From an uncultured Bacteroidota bacterium (GTDB lineage: Bacteria; Bacteroidota; Bacteroidia; Bacteroidales; P3): 64,000 nucleotides of DNA. Below the pieces are notes generated by a model. That model was not told the DNA's origin, did not search any database, and was given only the letters and a program-made list of their open reading frames with translations. Position numbers and translations under genes: made by a program. The DNA is taken from positions 18,626 through 82,625 of the forward strand of contig CADAQX010000017.1 of the NCBI GenBank assembly GCA_902790215.1. The letters run 5' to 3'. How positions within the stretch are numbered: position 1 is the first letter of the stretch; every line of letters starts with the position of its first letter. Shown here piece by piece: positions 2-10,765 of the stretch.

Positions 2-3000
2 GTCACCCTGACGGTGAGTAACCACTTTGGTGCCGATACCGCTATATGGGTGATCAGGGTGCTTGACTGCAGCGGGATAGCATTGCCCTATCACGAAGAC
101 TTTGAGGAGGTGACAGCCGTGTCGTCTTCGACTGTTGGCTATCTGCCTGGTTGTTGGAGCCACAACTGGAACGGCAGCAATGCCGCCTTAGCCCCGCATG
201 TGATTACCACTGGCGGCTACCAATTCCTGAGCGGTATTCCCAACAATGCCCTCCTGCTCCTTACCGGCGGTTCTACAGGCTATGGGAACCAAGCCGAAGT
301 GGTGCTGCCACGGTTTGCAGACAGCCTGCAGCACCTCTCTATTGCCTTTGACTATTGGAGCGAATCGTCCGGCACACTGACAGTAGGGTATCTGTACGAT
401 AACTTGTTCCATGCCGTTGCCACTATCCCCAACCATGGGGGCAACTACCTGCGCGACACCGTCAATTTCGCCTCAGCCATCAGCCCCGATGGTCGTATTG
501 CGCTGCGCTGGAGCCATGCCACTTCGTATTGGGGTGTGGCGATAGATAATGTGGAGGTGTTTTCCGACAACACCATCTATCCTCCCGACAGCCTGACGAT
601 CGACAGCATCGATGTCGTCTCTGCACGGGTGTCGTGGGGTGCTGTGACGGGTGCCACCGCCTACCACGTTGTGGTGGACAGTGAGGTGGACACGGTGGTT
701 GGCAGTCGCTCATTCGGCCTCTTAGGGCTGGCACCGCATACCACATACACTGTGCGCGTGGCGGCAATTGTAGGAACCGACACCGGTCGCTATGCCACAA
801 CCACCTTCACCACCCTCTGCGGTATCCAGTTGCCATACTACAACGACTTCAGCCAAGGCAACAACTCCATCGACTGCTGGACCAACTACCGTACTTCGTC
901 TGAAATCTATCAGCAGCAACTGTCCATCTCAAAGGATGCCTATTCGCTATGCCAGATGGCAACACCTGTTATCTACGCTCCCGGCAACAGTCTGTTCGTC
1001 ACTTTTCAATTGAAGAGGAGAGACTCTTGGCGCGAAGTAAGCCTCATCGTGGGTGCCATGACCGACCCGACGGATGCCAGCACATTCATGCCTATCGATA
1101 CCTTTGCAGTGGGCAGTTCATGGACAGAGTGCCAATTCAACACACGCGGTCTCGGTACCACTCCGCTTGCCATTGCCTTCCGCCCCTGCAACTCGTATGA
1201 TGACCTCCTCATTGACGACCTCCTTATCGAGTCCTCCACACCATGTGCCAGTCTCTTCTCGGTCGATGCTACCCTGCTCAGCGCCACCTCGGCCGTGCTC
1301 AGCTGGGAGTATGACATCGAGAGCGACCTTCCCATACTTGGGGCGCTGGTCACGCTCTACGACACCACCTCGGGCTACACAACAACATTCATTGCCCATG
1401 GCTCCGACACCATCCTCAACCGTCTGCCCCTGCGGCATACGTTCAGAGCCGATATCAGCACCTACTGCGGCAGCGACACCTCCGAGCCGCTCAGCGTCAC
1501 CTTCACACCCTCACCCATGCCCTGTGCCGAAGTGCAGGGAGACAATGTCTATCTGATATCCCATCCCATACAGAACATCAACAACTATGGCTATAGCCAG
1601 ATGCTCTATCCCGCCCTCTTGGCCGCCTCGGTCGATACGCTCTACGGCATCGCCCTCCGCTTCACCGGTGTCAACGACGGCGACACCCGCCTCATCGATG
1701 TCTATATCGGACAGACCTCCGCCACTACGCTCACCTCGCCTGTCAGTGCCACCAATCTCACGTTAGCAGTGCAGAACCACCTGTTCCCGTCCGTCCACGG
1801 ATGGGTAAAGATACCCTTTTCCACTCCTGTGCCACTCGACGGTGTGAGCAACCTCATCGTCACCATCGACGACAACACGGGCCACCCGGGCTATAACACC
1901 ATGAGTTTCGGAGCCCACCTCGCCGATACGGGTGGATTCCTCTACTACGACGGATGGCCCAACGCCAATGTTGACCCTTACACACTTGGTTTCGCCCTGT
2001 CGAGCAGCAACAACATCCCCGACATCCAGCTGCTTGGCCACTGTGCCACCGAACGCTGCCTACCGCCTGTCGTCAGCGTGGAGCCCGACACCCACAGCCT
2101 CACCGTCGCGTGGACCCGGCGCGGCAGCGAGAACCTGTGGCGCGTGGAATACCGCGAAGAGCGCGACAGCACCTGGATAGTGGTGGACAGTGTTGCCAAC
2201 ACCACATCGACCATCACGTACCTCAACGCCAGTTCGCGCTATCAGGTACGTGTCGGCTCGGTGTGTAGTGACACCAATATCATATACAGTGAGGTGGTGA
2301 CAACGGCCACCCTATGCGGGACTGTCGATGTGCCGTACTACCAAAACTTCCTAACCAACGCTGCCCCCTGCTGGAATCTCCGCGACTATCTGCCCAGCGC
2401 AAACTACGGAGTCGATCTCTTCTTGAGCATGCCCATCGTCTCGCCTGCCATCAACGGAAACCTTTCCCAGATGCAGGTGCGTTTCAAAATCACCGGTAGC
2501 CCCAATTTCCATCCCGTCGTCAAGGTAGGCGTCGGCAACTCCTATGGCAACAATGCTGTCTGGATTGATTCGATAATGCTTTCTTCTTTCGATGAGGAGG
2601 ATCATGTCGTATCGCTGGGCAGCTATACGGGTGGCGAGAGACATCTGTTGTTCATTGCCAACACTCCCTACGCACGCCTCCGGGAGGTAACTATTGAGTC
2701 GGTTGTTTGCCACGCAGTGCACCATATCACCGTCAGCCAACTCACCGACACTTCGGCACATTTCAATTGGCCTCCTGCAGGGAACGGCAACCAGTGGGCG
2801 GTATATTTAGGCGATACACAACTCGCCATCACGTCCAGCCCGACATACACCGTGCGCGGTCTTCTCCCCGGCAATGGCTACACCTTTGCCGTTCGCGAGA
2901 TATGCGGTGCAGGCGACACCTCCGAGGCCACCACTGTCACCTTCACCACGCTATGTCCCCCGCAGCCGCTGCCTTGGAGCGAGGATTTCGAGGCGTACAC

Positions 3001-4126
3001 CACCTCGTCGTCACCCATACCCTGTTGGTCCTATATCTTCCGGCCGCTCAACGTCGCAGTAGCCACCACTATTGCCTATATAGGTTATTACAACGCATCC
3101 CACACCTTGCGCATCTACGATGTCACCCATAGCAACCCGGTCGATACCAATATGACCAACTTCATCTGCACACCTATGCTCATGGCGGGCGGGGCTCCAT
3201 CGCGCATTGAATTCGATGCCTACCTGCAGAACGGACACGTCACTGTCGGAATAATGACCGACGTTGCCGACACCAATACATTCATCCCGCTGACCGAGAT
3301 AGACGACACGTCCACCCATTATGTTTTCACAGTCGACTCTTCGCTTTTCTCCATCGCCTTCACCTGCCACGGGGCAGTCAATTGCCACATTGACAACATC
3401 ACCGTGGGTGAATGCCCTACATATCGCCTCACTCTCGCCGTGAACGACACCACAATGGGTAGCGTCGATGGTGATGGAACCTATCCTGACGGAACTCAGG
3501 TTACTATCGCCGCTATACCCAACGAGGGCTACCATTTCGTCCAGTGGAGCGACAGCGTGACCGATGCTGCCCGCACAATTGTCCTCCACAACGATATCAG
3601 CCTCACAGCCTTCTTTGCGCCCGACACCGTGTGGCATCAAGTCTCCGTGAATACAAACGTAGATGGTGCAGTAGAAACATACGGTAGTGGTCGCTACGGC
3701 CATGGCGACACTGTGGAGATTGGATTCTTTTTACCCGATACTGCGACCGAGGGTGGCTACTGGCAGTTCATCGGTTGGGACGACACCAATGCGACCGAAA
3801 ATCCCCGCTGGGTTGTTGTTGTTTCCGACACCCTCCTCACAGCCCTGTTCCAATGGGTGGCCGACAGCGTGAGGATTGATGAAATCGATGGACTCACTCA
3901 ATCGGTCAGCCTCTTTCCCAACCCCGCCTTCCACACTGTCATCATCCGTAGTGAAAGAGATTGCACCGTAGCCTTCCTGTCGGCTGATGGTCGGGAGGTG
4001 CTGCGCATGGTGTGCCGTGCTGGTGACAACCCCGTCGATGTCCAACATCTTGCCCAGGGAGTATATTTCCTCCGCATACTCGACATGAATCAGCCTCCTA
4101 TCAAACTCATCGTGACGAGGGAGTAA
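2..4126 (+). CDS. Giant secreted FN3/jelly-roll protein with T9SS sorting domain (5' partial)
   Basis: The frame is open from base 2, so the true start lies upstream; 1374 residues are visible. The protein is modular. A recurrent unit begins with Cys and an LPY-x-x-DF-like motif (visible residues about 22, 273, 772 and 984) and alternates with fibronectin type III-like segments (about 192-272 and 686-770). Two InlB-B/Listeria-Bacteroides-like repeats follow near 1140 and 1212 (GYHFVQW and GGYWQFIGW cores). The last about 75 residues (from SVSLFPNPAF) are a type A T9SS C-terminal sorting domain ending in GVYFLRI and a basic tail. Such proteins are exported by Sec, then moved across the outer membrane by T9SS and attached to the surface. 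Adhesion or substrate binding is likely but no catalytic motif is seen. It is followed by a short repeat tract, not by a related gene. Confidence 0.85.
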   Translation, partial: VTLTVSNHFGADTAIWVIRVLDCSGIALPYHEDFEEVTAVSSSTVGYLPGCWSHNWNGSNAALAPHVITTGGYQFLSGIPNNALLLLTGGSTGYGNQAEVVLPRFADSLQHLSIAFDYWSESSGTLTVGYLYDNLFHAVATIPNHGGNYLRDTVNFASAISPDGRIALRWSHATSYWGVAIDNVEVFSDNTIYPPDSLTIDSIDVVSARVSWGAVTGATAYHVVVDSEVDTVVGSRSFGLLGLAPHTTYTVRVAAIVGTDTGRYATTTFTTLCGIQLPYYNDFSQGNNSIDCWTNYRTSSEIYQQQLSISKDAYSLCQMATPVIYAPGNSLFVTFQLKRRDSWREVSLIVGAMTDPTDASTFMPIDTFAVGSSWTECQFNTRGLGTTPLAIAFRPCNSYDDLLIDDLLIESSTPCASLFSVDATLLSATSAVLSWEYDIESDLPILGALVTLYDTTSGYTTTFIAHGSDTILNRLPLRHTFRADISTYCGSDTSEPLSVTFTPSPMPCAEVQGDNVYLISHPIQNINNYGYSQMLYPALLAASVDTLYGIALRFTGVNDGDTRLIDVYIGQTSATTLTSPVSATNLTLAVQNHLFPSVHGWVKIPFSTPVPLDGVSNLIVTIDDNTGHPGYNTMSFGAHLADTGGFLYYDGWPNANVDPYTLGFALSSSNNIPDIQLLGHCATERCLPPVVSVEPDTHSLTVAWTRRGSENLWRVEYREERDSTWIVVDSVANTTSTITYLNASSRYQVRVGSVCSDTNIIYSEVVTTATLCGTVDVPYYQNFLTNAAPCWNLRDYLPSANYGVDLFLSMPIVSPAINGNLSQMQVRFKITGSPNFHPVVKVGVGNSYGNNAVWIDSIMLSSFDEEDHVVSLGSYTGGERHLLFIANTPYARLREVTIESVVCHAVHHITVSQLTDTSAHFNWPPAGNGNQWAVYLGDTQLAITSSPTYTVRGLLPGNGYTFAVREICGAGDTSEATTVTFTTLCPPQPLPWSEDFEAYTTSSSPIPCWSYIFRPLNVAVATTIAYIGYYNASHTLRIYDVTHSNPVDTNMTNFICTPMLMAGGAPSRIEFDAYLQNGHVTVGIMTDVADTNTFIPLTEIDDTSTHYVFTVDSSLFSIAFTCHGAVNCHIDNITVGECPTYRLTLAVNDTTMGSVDGDGTYPDGTQVTIAAIPNEGYHFVQWSDSVTDAARTIVLHNDISLTAFFAPDTVWHQVSVNTNVDGAVETYGSGRYGHGDTVEIGFFLPDTATEGGYWQFIGWDDTNATENPRWVVVVSDTLLTALFQWVADSVRIDEIDGLTQSVSLFPNPAFHTVIIRSERDCTVAFLSADGREVLRMVCRAGDNPVDVQHLAQGVYFLRILDMNQPPIKLIVTRE

Positions 4127-4215: not shown

Positions 4216-4394
4216 CTATGCCCCGGCGGTGACGGTGGTGAGGCGGTTGAAGGCGGTCTGGGCGAGGGCGTGCAGCTGTTCGGGGGTGACGGTCTGGAGG
4301 GTGTCGAGGAGATTGTTGGAGAGCCGTTCGTCGACCTCGGTGGCCACCATCTGGCGGTAGCGGTCGGAGACCTCGAAGATGCCGTCGATGCTGC
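4216..4394 (-). pseudogene. Displaced 3' end of an M16 peptidase gene
   Basis: Read on the minus strand, this stretch encodes the last roughly 59 codons of an M16-family protein and ends in a proper stop (4216-4218). It matches the end of the intact M16 gene at 9509-9687. I count about 12 differences over some 172 aligned bases, several of them silent. Homology stops abruptly at 4394, where the sequence turns AT-rich. There is no start codon or upstream part. It is best read as the original gene end, cut off when the 4395-9508 segment entered and supplied a replacement end. A simple local duplication followed by drift is the alternative. Confidence 0.85.
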
Positions 4395-4479
4395 CTTTAT
4401 TCTCGTATAGGTTTCATTGGTATTCTACTTTGATGCTTTTTTCTTAAATGATACAGTTGCACTATTTTTGCAAAACTTT

Positions 4480-4509
4480 ATTGCAATTCGTTTTTTTTTC
4501 GTATTTTTG
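4480..4509 (+). promoter_or_regulatory. Bacteroidales-type promoter for the island operon
   Basis: A TATTTTTG box (4502-4509), matching the Bacteroides -7 element TAnnTTTG, stands 40 bases before the ATPase start. A TTG at 4481 lies about 18 bases upstream of the box. A second TATTTTTG is at 4463-4470. Confidence 0.55.
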
Positions 4510-4548
4510 CATTTGATAGGTGTTTTTTGTTTAGTTTGACTGATTACT

Positions 4549-5742
4549 ATGAAATATTTGACTATAAGGGGATTTGGTCCGATAAAAAGTGCGGAATTAC
4601 AAATTGACAGAATCGCACTGGTAATAGGAATGCAAAGTTCGGGAAAGAGCTCTTTGCTTAAAATGGCAGCGTTCTGTTCTTGGGTGGAGAAACGCATTAT
4701 GGTTACCCAGTCTGACAAGCAGTTCGTGGGTGGCAAATCTTTTATACAAGAGTTTGCAGATTACTATGGCCATTATGATTATTTCCAACCGAATACTTTA
4801 ATAACGTATTCTTCCAGTTACCTTTCGTTTGTTTTTGACAACGGTCAAACGGAACAGAAGTTTTCATTTAAATGGCAGTCTCACCGTTGGGATTATCGAC
4901 GACCCAAGGTGCAGTATATTCCGTCGGAACGTAACATTGCATCACTTATTCCTAAATGGCAGGACATCCCTGTCCGCAAAAGTCTTTCGGATTTTCTTAC
5001 CGAATGGGATAATGCTCGGCGACAGATAGGAAAAGAGGAGGACATGCTTCAGTTGGGATACTCCTACACTTTTGACCCGGCTACGGGAACGGATAGTATT
5101 CGCACCAGTGGAGGGAAACCGTTCCGGTTGACCGATGGCTCCAGTGGCCTTCAATCTCTTGTCCCTATGTATTTGTTGATAGATTATCTATGGCGGGGGC
5201 AATACATGAATTCCCATGATTCACAGCAGTTAAAACCACAGCAAAGAATGGAAAGGGAATACCTTCTTTCTGAATTGTATTTATCTGCTCCGGGTAAGGC
5301 TCAATCACTCCCTAATAAAATACCGTTTACTCTCCCTGTGGAAAAAAATATAGAGGGGAAGTCTTATTATTTCCAAACGCAGAAAGATGCCGTCCGATTT
5401 GAGAACAGGTGCCAGAGATTCCTGTTTACCGACCATAGCGAATTGTTCCTTGAAGAGCCAGAGCAGAACCTCTTTCCGCCGACACAGGGTCAACTTATAG
5501 ACTGGTTATATGATATGGCCTACGACAGCAAACATAGCAATACGCTGATGATTTCTACCCATAGCCCGTATATCCTAAATGCTCTTTGTAAGTTGCGCCG
5601 GAAAGATATGAGTTTTTATGTTACGCATCCCGACGAAGAAGCTTCGGATATGTTCAAAGTCAAACAACTATCAGTTGAGGAAATAGATGAGATATACAAT
5701 TCGGGTACAGACCTATTCTTTAATTATGCCGCATTTGTATGA
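4549..5742 (+). CDS. AAA15/OLD-like ATPase of the island
   Basis: This 397-residue protein has an SMC/ABC-type ATPase fold split around a middle region. Walker A is GMQSSGKS at residues 27-34. A DGSSGLQS signature-like stretch lies in the middle. A Walker B with catalytic glutamates (LFLEEPE) sits near 299-305, and a switch histidine in STHSPY near 338. The order and length fit the AAA15/OLD group of stand-alone ATPases that work with a nuclease partner in defence systems such as PARIS, Septu, OLD or Gabija-like pairs. The stop overlaps the start of the next gene by four bases (ATGA), which implies translational coupling. Low GC and the island location suggest transfer. The ATPase fold is sure; the defence role is inference. 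Confidence 0.8.
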   Translation: MKYLTIRGFGPIKSAELQIDRIALVIGMQSSGKSSLLKMAAFCSWVEKRIMVTQSDKQFVGGKSFIQEFADYYGHYDYFQPNTLITYSSSYLSFVFDNGQTEQKFSFKWQSHRWDYRRPKVQYIPSERNIASLIPKWQDIPVRKSLSDFLTEWDNARRQIGKEEDMLQLGYSYTFDPATGTDSIRTSGGKPFRLTDGSSGLQSLVPMYLLIDYLWRGQYMNSHDSQQLKPQQRMEREYLLSELYLSAPGKAQSLPNKIPFTLPVEKNIEGKSYYFQTQKDAVRFENRCQRFLFTDHSELFLEEPEQNLFPPTQGQLIDWLYDMAYDSKHSNTLMISTHSPYILNALCKLRRKDMSFYVTHPDEEASDMFKVKQLSVEEIDEIYNSGTDLFFNYAAFV

Positions 5743-6269
5743 GCCAGAAATCGCTGTTTGTAATCCCCGAGTGCTATATTGATACCGTATTAGTGGAGTA
5801 TGTTCTGGACATGCATGTCAATCACCAACATTCATGCAACAATGTGGTCCGGACTATGAAAGAACGGTATGGCGATGGGTTTGCTGTGGGCATTATTGAT
5901 AATGACAAACATGGCGTGGGGTATCTCAGTGAATGTTCTCTCGTTGCAAAATCAAAGCATCTTGAAGTGTTTAAGCACCAAAACAGAAGTCATTTTATTA
6001 TTACTGTAACCCCTGCGATGGATGGATTTGTGATGGAGTGTGCAAAAGAACAGGGCGTTAATCTGTCCGATATAGGACTTCCCACAGATCTAAAGTCGTT
6101 TAAGCACGTGACAAAAAGTGAGAGAATGCCTTTTGACAAGCGTTTTCCAATATTGTTTCAGGCTATTAAGGATAATGAGGAGATTGTTGCCCTCCGTAAT
6201 ACTTTGGGATACCTTTGCCAAGAGCAATACAATGTAAATCTGGCTACGGTTCGTCGTTTTTTTCAGTAA
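5739..6269 (+). CDS. Small TOPRIM-like partner of the AAA ATPase
   Basis: A 176-residue protein whose start overlaps the ATPase stop. I do not recognise a named family with certainty. The N-terminal strand carries an acidic residue (E11 in VIPECYID), and about 40 residues later there is a hydrophobic strand ending in D-N-D (GIIDNDK, D54 and D56). An early Glu followed by a DxD pair is the layout of TOPRIM nuclease domains. It also matches the partners called DUF4435, DUF4276 or RloB that accompany AAA15 ATPases. The protein is shorter than typical DUF4435 proteins (around 300 residues). If the reading is right, it would be a metal-dependent nuclease or RNase whose activity is gated by the ATPase. 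Confidence 0.55.
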   Translation: MSQKSLFVIPECYIDTVLVEYVLDMHVNHQHSCNNVVRTMKERYGDGFAVGIIDNDKHGVGYLSECSLVAKSKHLEVFKHQNRSHFIITVTPAMDGFVMECAKEQGVNLSDIGLPTDLKSFKHVTKSERMPFDKRFPILFQAIKDNEEIVALRNTLGYLCQEQYNVNLATVRRFFQ

Positions 6270-6306
6270 TAATTAAATAGAGTTGTATATAAGAATCGAT
6301 AATAAT

Positions 6307-9300
6307 ATGGATACGAAAAACTATTCGCTCGAAAAGCATCTGGAAGCCTTGTGTGCTGCCGATCCCGATTACAATCTGTTGCTCGATGCATGGCGGTTGA
6401 ACAAAAAGAATCTTCCCAATGCGTTGAGTACAATCGCATCCTATTTCCCACACTATAGTCGGCATGACGACAGCCATTCCATGACCTTGCTCGATAATAT
6501 CCAGCGGCTGTTGGGGCGCGACAGGGTGGAGCGGCTCGGCCCTACCGACACCTTCTTGATACTAATGGCAGGCTTGACGCATGACCTTGGTATGTATATG
6601 TCCTACACCTTTCTGGAGGAAGAGTGGGATAAGCCTGAAATGGCGGATTTGCTGACAACATACGCCTCCAGTGCCGACAAGCAGATTTCAGATGCTGCCA
6701 ACTTGTTGCTGAATCAAAGACTTCGCCCTGACGACCCGGCAAAGGGTTTCAAATGGGCACTGGAACTGCGCAATGCTGTCACTTTGATTATCGCGCAGCA
6801 GATGCGAGGCGGCCATGGCGACAGAAGCAAAGACTACTTGAACAAAAAGGATGATTTGTTTGCCAAGATGGCACACGATTTCTATTGTGATGCCTTCCCT
6901 TCGCGTTATTTGTCTTTGCTGGCTGATGTGGCACATCTGCATGGTGCCAATTTCGGTGAGTTAATGAATTTGCCTCATGAAGATGATGGATTGCGGGGTG
7001 ACAAGGTGCACCCACGGTTCATTGCTTGCATGATACGTTTGGGCGACTTGCTCGATGTGGACAGCAACCGATTCAACGATTTCACATTATCTACGCTGAA
7101 AGAAATGCCGGAATCCTCCAAGGCGCATTTCGATAAGCACCAGGCTGTGAAACACCTGCTCATCTCGCCTGATGGCATTGAGGCGGAGTTGGACTGCCCC
7201 ACCGATGCCTCTTACCGTGTAGCCCGCGAGCTGTTCGACATGTTGGAAAAAGAGGTGGAGAAGCAGAGCCAGAACTGGAACCGCATAGCCCCTGCCGATT
7301 TGGGCGGGCTCCCTCCTGTACTACATAATGACAGTATTCAAATCTACTACAAAGGGGCGAAGACGCGTCCCGAGTTGCGGAATCTTCGTTTTGACATATC
7401 AAGCAAGCGCACCTTTGAGATGCTGAAAGGGGGTGCTATCTATATAGATCCTGGAAGGGTGTTTATTCGCGAGATTGTGCAAAACGCCATGGACGCGACC
7501 AAGTTGCAGATATGGAAAGATATGGATTACTACTTTCCATACCATCTGACAAACCCGGAACGTGACATCAGGTCGGCTGCCGACATCATGTTTGCGAGCG
7601 ATGTTCCCCAGTCTATCTATGAGCGCTATCCGATAAACCTCAAAGTGAAATATGACGAAGAGAAACAGGTGGTGCGAGTGGCTTGCGAGGATTGGGGGAC
7701 AGGCATATCGGAGGAGAGTTTGATACGGATGACCAGCCAAGTGGGGGCCAGCCGCAAGGCGGACAGGGACTATGAAGCCATGGTGCAGAAGATGCCGTAC
7801 TTTCTGCAGCCGACAGCCGCTTTTGGCTTGGGTCTGCAGACGGTCTTTTATGTCGCTAATGAGTTCACTGTCGATACGCATTACCCGGGCGAGCCAACGC
7901 GGAGGATTGTTTTCCGTTCTTCGGTGGATGGCAGTTTCTGCTCCATCGAAGAGGAGAATATCGACTTTAAACGTCCAATCAAGGGGACGGACCGGACCAA
8001 GGATGTTCCCCATGGCACCACAGTTACAATTGAGATTGATCCCAACCATTTTGGAGAGCTGTTCGAATTAAATAAGGATGAGTTGGATGGACTAATGAAA
8101 AACATGGATAGCGTCCCCTATTACATTGTGAGTAAAGTCGAAGGATATATAAACCGTACTTTTGAACATGTGGAAAAAATTCCCATCCACTATACGTCAG
8201 AGTATCAGACAAAAGTCTTTGGTAAGGAGGAAAAAGGTGATAGGTACGAATTTCTTTCAGAGGAGCAGCACTTCCGAGCCAGTTGGAAACAGAATGATGA
8301 TGGAACCCTGCTTTTCCGTATAGAAGAAAATAAATATGGTTCCGAGATGGTTGTATTTTTTGATTTAGATGATGGTAACGATGTCCTTCTTTTCTTTCGG
8401 GATATTCCAATAAGCAGTAATTGCTACTGCTCATTTGATGGAAATTGGAATCTTTTTTGTAGGCAAGCAGACAAGTTTTTGACTGTCTCCCGGGACAGAT
8501 TGCTTCCCCAGGGAGAGGATTGGTGTCAAAAAACATGGGATGTATTATCTCCCGATATTCTCAGATTAGTGTACCCAAAATTACTGGAAGAATGTAAAGG
8601 GGCATGTTTAAACAATGTTAATAACAGGCTTTCTCTAAAAAAGAAGCATTCTCTCCAAAAGCAATATAATAAGCTTTGTTGTGTAAATTGGATTTCACCA
8701 AATCCTATTAATATGGATTACCAACCTTTAAGTGATTATTTTTTGGATAGAAAGAATTTTATTAAATTGAATGGTGATACGGTAACAGCCAAACAATTGT
8801 TTGAAGCGAGGAGAGTATGTGATTATGATAAAACCTATACAACCAGTAAGACTGAGATAATGAGGCTTTTTAAAAAGGTATCATCACCATCAGATGATAT
8901 AGTGTTTTGTAATCGTGATAACGTGTCGTTTCCTGAAAGTTTTGTGTGTAGTAGGATTGTTGCTGCCAGAAATGTTAACGTATTCTCCTTAAATACAAAT
9001 TCGGAGATACCTCAATTCGTTGAAATTGATACAAAAGACATTAAGGACTATTATGATACTAGTTTTTTATTTTTATTACATGGTCTCAAAGAGTATGAGA
9101 AAATAGTGGTAGGAAAGGAGTATGCCCCGCAACTGGGTTATAGTATACCCGATTATGGGAATTGCTGGATCTATCCAATGCCTGTCCGTAATGCAGACTA
9201 TGAAGATGCAGATGGGTATGAGATAGAACGAGAGGAGATGAGATTGAAACTGGAAAAGGGTTATATCAAAGAATTGGTTCCGGAATATCTGGTGAAATTG

Positions 9301-9423
9301 ATTCAGAAGTACAATGCATTGAAAAATGACAAACTGACAGCGGATGAGATTTACAATGAGTATATCCGCCTAATCCTTGACGCTCATTATGGTTATCTTC
9401 CGCCCCAAAGTGAAGAACGATAA
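6307..9423 (+). CDS. HD-domain plus Hsp90-like (GHKL) ATPase protein
   Basis: A 1038-residue protein; I take ATG 6307 rather than the in-frame TTG at 6283. The N-terminus has an HD-type metal-binding region with H49, H53-D54, H57 and H92-D93 (HYSRHDDSHS and LTHDLG), resembling the HD-CE class seen next to HATPase domains. A GHKL/Hsp90-like ATPase follows: N box REIVQNAMDAT near 388, G1 box DWGTGIS near 462, G2 box AAFGLGL near 505. The remaining 500 or so residues have no motif I recognise and are encoded by markedly more AT-rich DNA than the first half. It starts 37 bases after the TOPRIM-like gene on the same strand, so co-transcription is likely. HD-GHKL proteins are usually annotated only as hypothetical; a sensor or effector role in conflict is inference. 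Confidence 0.75.
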   Translation: MDTKNYSLEKHLEALCAADPDYNLLLDAWRLNKKNLPNALSTIASYFPHYSRHDDSHSMTLLDNIQRLLGRDRVERLGPTDTFLILMAGLTHDLGMYMSYTFLEEEWDKPEMADLLTTYASSADKQISDAANLLLNQRLRPDDPAKGFKWALELRNAVTLIIAQQMRGGHGDRSKDYLNKKDDLFAKMAHDFYCDAFPSRYLSLLADVAHLHGANFGELMNLPHEDDGLRGDKVHPRFIACMIRLGDLLDVDSNRFNDFTLSTLKEMPESSKAHFDKHQAVKHLLISPDGIEAELDCPTDASYRVARELFDMLEKEVEKQSQNWNRIAPADLGGLPPVLHNDSIQIYYKGAKTRPELRNLRFDISSKRTFEMLKGGAIYIDPGRVFIREIVQNAMDATKLQIWKDMDYYFPYHLTNPERDIRSAADIMFASDVPQSIYERYPINLKVKYDEEKQVVRVACEDWGTGISEESLIRMTSQVGASRKADRDYEAMVQKMPYFLQPTAAFGLGLQTVFYVANEFTVDTHYPGEPTRRIVFRSSVDGSFCSIEEENIDFKRPIKGTDRTKDVPHGTTVTIEIDPNHFGELFELNKDELDGLMKNMDSVPYYIVSKVEGYINRTFEHVEKIPIHYTSEYQTKVFGKEEKGDRYEFLSEEQHFRASWKQNDDGTLLFRIEENKYGSEMVVFFDLDDGNDVLLFFRDIPISSNCYCSFDGNWNLFCRQADKFLTVSRDRLLPQGEDWCQKTWDVLSPDILRLVYPKLLEECKGACLNNVNNRLSLKKKHSLQKQYNKLCCVNWISPNPINMDYQPLSDYFLDRKNFIKLNGDTVTAKQLFEARRVCDYDKTYTTSKTEIMRLFKKVSSPSDDIVFCNRDNVSFPESFVCSRIVAARNVNVFSLNTNSEIPQFVEIDTKDIKDYYDTSFLFLLHGLKEYEKIVVGKEYAPQLGYSIPDYGNCWIYPMPVRNADYEDADGYEIEREEMRLKLEKGYIKELVPEYLVKLIQKYNALKNDKLTADEIYNEYIRLILDAHYGYLPPQSEER

Positions 9424-9444
9424 TCTAGGCGGTTTGGCTTGAAA

Positions 9445-9482
9445 ACACAAAAGGCTGGGGCGTTGGCTCCAGCCTTTTGTGT
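9445..9482. terminator. Symmetric rho-independent terminator at the island end
   Basis: A perfect 14-base inverted repeat (ACACAAAAGGCTGG ... CCAGCCTTTTGTGT) around a 10-base loop, with A and T runs that could end transcription in both directions. It separates the HD-GHKL gene from the convergent M16 gene. Confidence 0.85.
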
Positions 9483-9508
9483 TTGTGGTGTATGAGAATA
9501 GGGGTTGA

Positions 9509-10765
9509 TTAGGTGGGACCGGCGGTGACGGTGGTGAGGCGGTTGAAGGCGGTCTGGGCGAGGGCGTGTAGTTGTTCGGGGGTGACGGTCTGGAGGGTGT
9601 TGAGCAGGTTGGTGGAGAGCCGTTCGTCGACCTCGGTGGCCACCATTTGGCGGTAACGGTCTGAGACTTCGAACACGCCGTCGATGCTGCGGATGAAGTC
9701 GCCCATCATGAAGTTGCGTACGCGGTCGAGTTCGTCTTGGGCGACGGGCTCCTGGCGCAGAAGGTCTATCTCGCGATTGATTTCCTTGAGGGCGTCCTGT
9801 GTGGCCGAGGCGGCGACGTCGGCTGTGATGTAGAACACGATACTGCCTCGGAATATCTGGGTGGTGCTGTAGATGCCGTAGGTGTAGCCTTTGTCTTCGC
9901 GCAGGTTGCTCATGAGGCGCGAGCCGAAGTATCCGCCGAGGACGGTGTTGAGCACCATGAAGCGGGTGTAGTCGATGCTGTGCCACTCGAGGGGTAGGAT
10001 GCGGCCAACGCGGATGGTGAACTGCACGGCGTTGGGCACGGTGATGTGGCTGACTGCATCGGTATAGGCTTCTGGGCAGGGCTCGGGGAGCGTCACGGCG
10101 GCGGTGGCGACGGAGGGGTCGGCCAAGGGTGCCAGGTGCTGCTCGGTAAGGTCGAGCAGCTCGGGGTCGATGGCTCCGCTGAGGACGATATGTGAGGTGG
10201 CGAGGCTGTAGTGGCGGTGGATGAAGTCGGCAATATCCTTGGGGGTGAGAAGGTCGAGGTCGTCGGGTGTGGCATAGGTGCCCAAGGGGTGGTTGGTTCC
10301 ATAGAGTAGTTCGTAGTAGCGGTTGCGGGCGAGATAGGAGGTCTTTTGGAAGCTAGTGCGGAGCTGTGCGCGGCGGTTGTTGATGTAGGCCTCGAAAAGT
10401 TGGGGGGTGACAACGGGTGAGTCGAACATCTGGCGTATGACGGGAAGGACGAGCCCGGCAAAGCGTCGGAGGAAGTAGAAAGAGATGTTGGCGGTGCAGA
10501 CGTCGGTCATGCGCTCGACGATGATGCCATGGAAGTCGATGAACTCGGCCATCTGCTGTGCAGTGAGCTTGGCGGTGGCTTCGCCGAAGAGCTGGTTGGC
10601 GGCGTGTGCCATGCTTTTGAGAGTCTGCCGGGCACTGCCTGCTTCGACGGTGATGTCGAGTTTGACCAGTCCAAGTGACTGGTTCGGGAAGAGGTAAAGG
10701 GTGTTGCCGTTGGGCAGGGTGTGTTCCTGCGGTATGAGGGGCTGGAGCGAAGGGGGTTGTAGCAT
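9509..10765 (-). CDS. M16 (pitrilysin-like) family protein without the zinc motif
   Basis: A 418-residue protein of the M16 peptidase family. It has the N-terminal LPNG-x-x-LYL strand, a helical region where the catalytic motif belongs, and a C-terminal half with the DRVRNFMMGDF helix. The inverted zinc motif HxxEH is absent; the aligned stretch reads MAHAANQLF. It is therefore probably the non-catalytic partner of a two-subunit M16 protease or a structural homologue. No signal peptide is evident, unlike many periplasmic M16 proteins. Its last 60 or so codons exist a second time at 4216-4394, so the current 3' end may have come with the island. The catalytic partner is not in this window. Confidence 0.8.
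   Translation of the reverse strand: MLQPPSLQPLIPQEHTLPNGNTLYLFPNQSLGLVKLDITVEAGSARQTLKSMAHAANQLFGEATAKLTAQQMAEFIDFHGIIVERMTDVCTANISFYFLRRFAGLVLPVIRQMFDSPVVTPQLFEAYINNRRAQLRTSFQKTSYLARNRYYELLYGTNHPLGTYATPDDLDLLTPKDIADFIHRHYSLATSHIVLSGAIDPELLDLTEQHLAPLADPSVATAAVTLPEPCPEAYTDAVSHITVPNAVQFTIRVGRILPLEWHSIDYTRFMVLNTVLGGYFGSRLMSNLREDKGYTYGIYSTTQIFRGSIVFYITADVAASATQDALKEINREIDLLRQEPVAQDELDRVRNFMMGDFIRSIDGVFEVSDRYRQMVATEVDERLSTNLLNTLQTVTPEQLHALAQTAFNRLTTVTAGPT

What the first reader, a model, noticed from the sequence alone, without database searches (positions are those of the whole stretch)
4549..9423. Candidate undescribed defence system: AAA15 ATPase, TOPRIM-like protein and HD-GHKL protein
A four-base overlap couples an AAA15/OLD-like ATPase to a small protein with a TOPRIM-like E...DxD layout, the known logic of PARIS-type and OLD-type systems. 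A third gene with an HD domain and an Hsp90-like ATPase, plus a long novel C-terminal part, follows on the same strand. I know of no named system with this three-gene order, though I cannot exclude one. The foreign composition and island setting strengthen the conflict reading.
Basis: partly seen in the sequence, partly recalled or inferred. Interest (0 to 1): 0.82.

Follow-up and report, generated by a model that had tools for sequence, protein, structure and literature searches.

The report
OLD-type ATPase–Toprim pair beside HD–Hsp90 gene
A Bacteroidales genome carries, inserted at the end of a peptidase gene, a two-gene cassette that looks like an unnamed relative of a known virus-defence switch, next to a separate one-gene protein that fuses a nucleotide-cutting domain to a heat-shock-like ATPase; they look like two independent candidate defences rather than one three-gene system.

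The parts
4223..4394 (.). Left direct repeat (172 nt): displaced 3' end of the M16-peptidase gene, with the flank seen at empty sites
   Evidence: 93% identical to 9519-9690; past the gene end it runs on like the empty-site genomes G079/G052
4395..4548 (+). Left end of the insert and leader of the pair
   Evidence: win 4469-4587 is 89.9% identical to L036 6503-6620 in G012; absent from the empty sites aligned
4549..5742 (+). P1: OLD-type ABC ATPase, 397 aa, no fused Toprim
   Evidence: AAA_15 54.8 bits; PADLOC PDC-M29A 4.3e-52; motifs; tree
5739..6269 (+). P2: Toprim-like small protein, 176 aa, putative nuclease subunit
6307..9423 (+). P3: HD-CE + Hsp90-like ATPase domain + long C-terminal part without a significant match of its own, 1038 aa; a separate one-gene module
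   Evidence: HD-CE 155.7 bits; Hsp90 profile hits 1.2e-12; C-terminal part; without P1-P2 in G082, G122
9519..9690 (.). Right direct repeat: 3' end of the intact M16-peptidase gene
   Evidence: its 3' flank resembles that of other P3-bearing genomes
9509..10765 (-). M16-peptidase-family gene whose 3' end is the insertion site
   Evidence: Peptidase_M16_C 90 bits, cut-off 23; variable site

Best explanation
Two independent candidate anti-phage modules have collected at one chromosomal site. (1) P1-P2 is a two-gene OLD-family system in which ATPase and Toprim are separate proteins, working like PARIS but with its own Toprim family. P1 most likely assembles as an ATP-bound scaffold that holds P2 inactive; an infection signal changes P1's state and frees or activates P2, whose E11/D54/D56 metal site cuts nucleic acid (tRNA or DNA, not decided) and stops growth before the phage multiplies. 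Shown here: coupling, ATPase family, motifs, moderate Toprim-fold likeness, relation to AriA and PDC-M29A. Inferred: complex, trigger, substrate, defence. (2) P3 is a single-gene protein in which an Hsp90-like ATPase most likely senses, or is loaded by, a phage or stress signal and switches on an HD phosphohydrolase. Shown: the two domains with conserved motifs, and relatives in the P2-phage hotspot. Inferred: activity and function. The block probably entered by recombination at the 3' end of an M16-peptidase gene.
Confidence: 0.6

Rival explanations
1. One three-gene defence operon: P3 is a regulator or second effector of P1-P2 in this lineage.
For: Same strand, 37 nt between the P2 stop and the P3 ATG (coordinates). 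G012 has P3 plus a remnant of the start of P1 and end of P2 at the same site.
Against: P3 in 0 of 80 P2 neighbourhoods (51 of the 80 loci are 15 kb or longer); P3 without P1-P2 at the same site in G082 and G122; in G012 P3 persists although P1-P2 is reduced to a remnant.
Confidence: 0.1
2. P1-P2 has a housekeeping or stress role rather than defence, as proposed for the class-5 OLD protein Cran1 of archaea.
For: Neighbouring genes are mostly ordinary and there is no visible local excess of PADLOC matches. A non-defence OLD protein is published (PMC12796447, passages).
Against: Patchy presence: gene 2 in 12 of 190 genomes of the family (one a remnant) and 8 of 345 of the phylum (one with stops, one weak). 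A related pair in an archaeal virus. In this window a variable site that holds a DpdF/PsyrT-like helicase gene in one other genome.
Confidence: 0.2
3. P2 is a Toprim-fold protein without nuclease activity (a regulator or antitoxin of P1), and P1 or another factor is the effector.
For: Further invariant residues beside E and DxD (C12, N28, C33, H80, K126 in 74 of 74 and H29 in 73 of 74) suggest another chemistry or a metal site. Sequence comparison with known Toprim families is weak.
Against: E11 and D54xD56 are kept in the archaeal-virus relative, where N28, C33 and H80 are replaced. Related ATPases are followed by PD-(D/E)xK-like proteins, so the partner slot looks like a nuclease slot (motif only).
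Confidence: 0.15
4. The 172-nt repeats come from a local duplication unrelated to entry of the genes.
For: No recombinase in the insert; 93% identity fits a duplication followed by drift.
Against: The left copy carries the downstream flank of empty-site genomes and the right copy the flank type of P3-bearing genomes, as expected from insertion with element-borne sequence.
Confidence: 0.2

Closest known systems
PARIS (AriA-AriB), OLD class 4
   Same: AAA15/OLD ATPase and Toprim encoded by two adjacent genes; E and DxD in both (PMC9122126, PMC10568477 and PMC12796447, passages)
   Different: P2 has no DUF4435 match; six AriA-type ATPases from the same bacterial family form a separate clade (100/100); P2 is 176 aa against 250-307 for the six AriB relatives looked at
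PADLOC candidate PDC-M29 (PDC-M29A + PDC-M29B)
   Same: P1 matches PDC-M29A at 4.3e-52, 175.7 bits
   Different: No PADLOC model, PDC-M29B included, matches P2; the window's own genome has a separate locus with a P1 relative followed by a PDC-M29B match (PDLC04563), whose protein has a CD...LLEFK stretch read as PD-(D/E)xK
Gabija GajA and OLD class 1 nucleases
   Same: ATPase family; their Toprims are the best structural matches of P2
   Different: Toprim not fused to the ATPase; no GajB helicase next to it
HtpG/Hsp90 chaperones
   Same: P3's GHKL ATPase domain matches Hsp90 N-domains; a tentative middle-domain alignment with an SRD/SRE loop
   Different: N-terminal HD-CE domain added; far below the HtpG model's cut-off (29 of 371 bits); residues 580-790 alone match no solved structure and the rest is unassigned
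DRT reverse-transcriptase family UG24
   Same: The HD part of P3 matches residues 696-907 of the PADLOC model RT_UG24 (2e-9)
   Different: No reverse transcriptase in P3

Membership tests
PARIS | AAA_15 or AAA_21 ATPase next to the effector gene | tested here: met
   AAA_15 54.8 bits (cut-off 32.1), AAA_21 31.6 (cut-off 27); four-base overlap
PARIS | DUF4435 (PF14491) partner over 27 bits, the rule in PMC9122126 (passage) | tested here: not met
   No PF14491 hit for P2 (E<=1) or among P2 and 10 relatives (E<=10)
PARIS | ATPase groups with AriA | tested here: not met
   Six DUF4435-partnered ATPases form their own clade, 100/100; long branches, so the depth is unsure
PARIS | Triggered by Ocr; cleaves tRNA | not testable with these tools
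   -
OLD class 4 (split ATPase and Toprim) | Separate partner with a Toprim fold, E and DxD | tested here: met
PDC-M29 | PDC-M29A ATPase | tested here: met
   PDLC04562 4.3e-52
PDC-M29 | PDC-M29B partner | tested here: not met
   P2 and 10 relatives match no PADLOC model at E<=10; PDLC04563 finds another locus in G000
Gabija | Toprim fused to ATPase plus UvrD-like helicase gene | tested here: not met
   P1 matches only ATPase-type models in Pfam; the next genes are P2 and P3
Hsp90 (HtpG) | GHKL N-terminal ATPase domain of Hsp90 type | tested here: met
   Profile of residues 374-560 hits Hsp90 structures, best 1.2e-12; E389, N393, D396, D462, G464, G466, G507, G509 invariant in 7 of 7 rows
Hsp90 (HtpG) | Middle domain with catalytic loop | tested here: inconclusive
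   Profile 374-790 aligns through the loop of 2o1w, but scores only about 3 bits more than N-domain-only structures (41.3 against 38.2), and 580-790 alone finds nothing at E<=0.1. R729 invariant in 7 of 7 and 4 of 4 rows; that this is the Hsp90 catalytic arginine is recalled
Hsp90 (HtpG) | HtpG equivalog score | tested here: not met
   PRK05218 29 bits of 371 needed
HD-CE domain family (PF24391) | HD-CE match and H...HD...D | tested here: met
   155.7 bits, cut-off 27; H53, H57, H92, D93, D247 invariant in 7 of 7 rows
DRT UG24 | Reverse transcriptase fused to HD | tested here: not met
   No reverse-transcriptase match in P3 in Pfam or NCBIfam; only the HD part of RT_UG24 is matched

The most novel reading that the evidence does not exclude
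P3 founds an undescribed one-gene anti-phage kind in which an Hsp90-type conformational engine is wired directly to an HD nucleotide phosphohydrolase, found both in Bacteroidota chromosomes and in the defence hotspot of P2-like prophages. Beside it, P1-P2 shows that one OLD-ATPase lineage exchanges its weapon between a new Toprim family (with extra invariant Cys/His residues) and PD-(D/E)xK-like nucleases, reaching an archaeal virus.
Probability: 0.35. Interest if true: 0.72.

Novelty: new variant of a known kind. Interest (0 to 1): 0.5.

Why it matters
If right, two ready-to-test candidate defences sit on about 5 kb. The pair gives a natural experiment in how an OLD-type sensor stays the same while its nuclease changes. 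P3 asks whether bacteria use an Hsp90-like ATPase as an infection sensor, which would connect chaperone-type GHKL machines with immunity. The M16-peptidase 3' end is a small insertion site that can be searched for more such cargo in this genus.

Tried and rejected
One three-gene system: rejected on co-occurrence. PARIS membership: rejected on DUF4435 and tree. PDC-M29 membership: A component yes, B component no.

P2 by sequence alone: no Pfam, PADLOC or NCBIfam family for P2 at E<=1 nor PHROG at E<=0.1, apart from one sub-cut-off chance-like Pfam line; ten relatives gave only scattered weak Pfam lines, each for one member, and no PADLOC line; no convincing PDB sequence relative. Foldseek: 0 matches at E<=0.001 in PDB and BFVD. 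Profile comparison with six AriB: E 0.019, probability 2.5%; with nine OLD Toprims: no sensible alignment.

P3: structure failed with only four rows, pLDDT 35.8. Extra viral scans for more P3 rows added nothing of use. No E. coli record matched the phage-borne P3 relative at DNA level.

Defence-island test of P1-P2: ORFs of 150-1500 aa, 224 within 2.5 kb and 159 at 6.5 kb or more from the pair, 203 and 152 after removing near-duplicates, 120 of each scanned. At E<=1e-20, 50 PADLOC families were matched near (25 shown) and 18 far; the near list is swollen by many PDC-S02 models each matched by one protein, and the numbers of matching proteins are not given, so I read no enrichment. Pfam of the near set is mostly ordinary (163 families, 25 shown).

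Direction of the partner switch: the free tree nests the other-partnered ATPases inside P2-partnered ones, but holding the 33 P2-partnered rows together is not rejected (p-AU 0.361), so only one switch, not its direction, is supported. The PD-(D/E)xK label rests on a motif, without a Pfam hit in the five partners scanned.

The phylum survey with the P3 profile counts 231 of 345 genomes, but most of the listed matches cover only the ATPase part in open frames of about 620-700 aa (read by me as ordinary Hsp90- and related GHKL proteins); few reach the HD part.

Papers: PDC-M29 in print, 0 papers; HD-CE with Hsp90, one unrelated paper; other searches. Passages only were read of PMC10568477, PMC10952713, PMC9122126, PMC3710099, PMC12839542, PMC12796447, PMC12409363 and PMC11514479; a term search in PMC12988326 returned no passage; all others were seen as listings only. 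Subscription papers and preprints are not covered.

Full report
WHAT IS THERE. The window is part of genome G000 (2.98 Mb, 96.85% complete). It is Bacteroidales by inference: same-genus genomes G016, G050, G067 and G113 have contigs of the same lengths as records titled Bacteroidales. P1 and P2 share four bases. The stretch 4395-9518 is 43.0% G+C, lower than any of 589 equally long sliding stretches of the window (mean 53.0%, sd 2.5%).

P1. AAA_15 at 54.8 bits and AAA_21 at 31.6, with Walker A, an SSGLQS signature-like motif, EEPE and STH. The nearest PADLOC model is PDC-M29A (4.3e-52), far ahead of AriA (1.4e-16) and GajA (8e-11). No Toprim is fused to it. PDC means phage defence candidate (PMC11514479, passages); no paper in the library names PDC-M29.

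COUPLING. P1 lies immediately upstream on the same strand in 77 of the 80 loci (2 end at the contig edge, 1 P2 ORF was not called); 55 of the 77 overlap, 38 by exactly four bases, and in one (L104) the called P2 ORF is short and lies 254 nt away. P3 is in 0 of 80 by blastp on ORFs (51 loci are 15 kb or longer). In the family survey, P2 is in 12 of 190 genomes, one of them (G012) a 27-residue remnant, and in each of the other ten loci outside G000 it follows P1. In the phylum survey, 8 of 345, one with stops inside and one weak. None was found in viral contigs or plasmids, but the phage collection has one: Geoglobus ahangari pleomorphic virus 1, an archaeal virus, with a P1-like ATPase directly followed by a P2-like protein; the P2 profile scores it 55.4 bits; E, C12, D15, H29 and DxD are kept, N28, C33 and H80 are replaced.

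ONE ATPASE LINEAGE, TWO WEAPONS. P1 relatives are in 46 of 189 family genomes. Of 17 stretches fetched around more distant ones, 16 gave 17 P1 relatives by blastp (L166 gave none, L171 two), each followed on the same strand by a small protein of 138-225 aa. None of these 17 matches the P2 profile; one, at 0.014, is the nearest blastp line to P2. The pattern C[DE]...E.K fits 15 of 17, compactly and with hydrophobic residues before the E in 13 by eye, which I read as PD-(D/E)xK (no Pfam hit in the five scanned). PADLOC's PDC-M29B (PDLC04563) marks such a partner in G000 itself at C1:1722-2084. A tree of 57 ATPases puts six DUF4435-partnered AriA-type rows in one clade (100/100), the 17 other-partnered rows in one clade (100/99), and window P1 with three P2-partnered rows (100/99). 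Which partner type is older is not resolved (p-AU 0.361). OLD-ABC ATPases with alternative nucleases are a published theme (PMC12839542, passages).

P3. HD-CE at 155.7 bits; the same HD part matches the PADLOC reverse-transcriptase model RT_UG24 (2e-9). A seven-sequence profile of residues 374-560 hits Hsp90 proteins (best 1.2e-12). A profile of 374-790 has as its best hit an N+middle structure of endoplasmin (2o1w, 1.7e-12), aligned through the NVSRETLQQ loop to TVSRDRLLPQ of P3, and R729 there is invariant. But that alignment scores only about 3 bits more than N-domain-only structures, and residues 580-790 alone find nothing credible, so an Hsp90 middle domain is a guess. The C-terminal part is otherwise unassigned; a model with four rows failed.

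P3 STANDS ALONE. In the genus, 11 of 120 genomes match P3, but only four (G000, G082, G122, G012) do so nearly full length, and all four have it beside the same M16-peptidase gene. Four plasmid records carry relatives (two of Lachnospira eligens, one Pantoea, one Hymenobacter), of which the Pantoea and Hymenobacter ones lie within about 1.5 kb of integrase genes. Of three viral contigs found, in two the relative lies between a replication gene and the portal gene (L125: phrog_91 at 3.5e-268 and phrog_68 at 2.9e-169; L124: portal phrog_68 scanned, the replication gene judged by likeness), which is where PMC9122126 places the P2-phage defence hotspot (between gpA and gpQ; passages); the third (L123) lies near tail genes.

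THE SITE. A 172-nt direct repeat, 93% identical, flanks the block: 4223-4394 and 9519-9690, the latter inside the end of the M16-peptidase gene. Of 12 genomes compared, the site lacks an insert in 6 (G079, G052, G124, G109, G008, G006), holds P3 without P1-P2 in 2 (G082, G122), P3 with a P1-P2 remnant in 1 (G012), all three genes in 1 (G000), a 1698-aa DpdF/PsyrT-like helicase protein (PADLOC 1.1e-59) with a coiled-coil-like protein in 1 (G118), and is not readable in 1 (G121, contig end). Sites were called from ORFs of at least 90 aa; M16 itself was masked by longer overlapping ORFs in G082 and G122, where it was found by tblastn. The left repeat in the window continues into the flank seen at empty sites of G079/G052, while the right repeat has the flank type of P3-bearing genomes; G012 keeps a shorter trace of the same left junction. 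I infer insertion at the gene's 3' end with the insert supplying a replacement 3' end. No recombinase gene is in the insert, so the route (integrase in trans or homologous recombination of a circle) is open.

MECHANISM. For P1-P2 the best reading is a PARIS-like switch: an OLD ATPase scaffold restrains a Toprim nuclease until infection. In PARIS the ATPase activates AriB, which cuts tRNA (PMC12839542 and PMC12409363, passages). P2's substrate cannot be told. For P3 the best reading is ATP-driven control of an HD phosphohydrolase. Neither function was tested, and the neighbourhood test for P1-P2 gave no support.

VERDICT. P1-P2 is a new variant of the OLD/PARIS kind with an unnamed Toprim family; P3 is a candidate one-gene system for which I found no description in the library searched.

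Noticed in passing
G000:C1:334-2099 (L158): The same genome carries a second, distant P1-type ATPase followed by a PDC-M29B match: a separate PDC-M29-like locus.
   Followed up: partly
L175 3012-4453 (BK065157.1 5364-6805): Geoglobus ahangari pleomorphic virus 1, an archaeal virus, carries a P1-like ATPase and P2-like protein side by side, preceded and followed by genes annotated as winged-helix regulators.
   Followed up: partly
L036 6503-6771 (G012): P1-P2 is reduced to a remnant (start of P1, end of P2) while P3 next to it is open, suggesting loss of the pair with P3 kept.
   Followed up: partly
L190 4986-11113 (G118): At the same M16 site, a 1698-aa protein with DpdF/PsyrT-like helicase matches and a 342-aa coiled-coil-like protein.
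   Followed up: partly
window 14-4126; L187 4183-11412; L188 4029-11720: The gene left of the insert resembles part of a very large protein: one ORF of 2409 and 2563 aa in the empty-site genomes G079 and G052, but shorter ORFs in G000 (L037) and G012 (L036).
   Followed up: no
L034 7177-8890 and 11137-12342 (G096): A P1-P2 pair and a second P1-type ATPase without P2 lie within about 2.3 kb of each other.
   Followed up: no
P2 residues C12, H29, C33, H80: Invariant or near-invariant Cys/His in the Bacteroidota P2 family could form a metal site; C33 and H80 are replaced in the archaeal-virus relative. Unexplained.
   Followed up: partly
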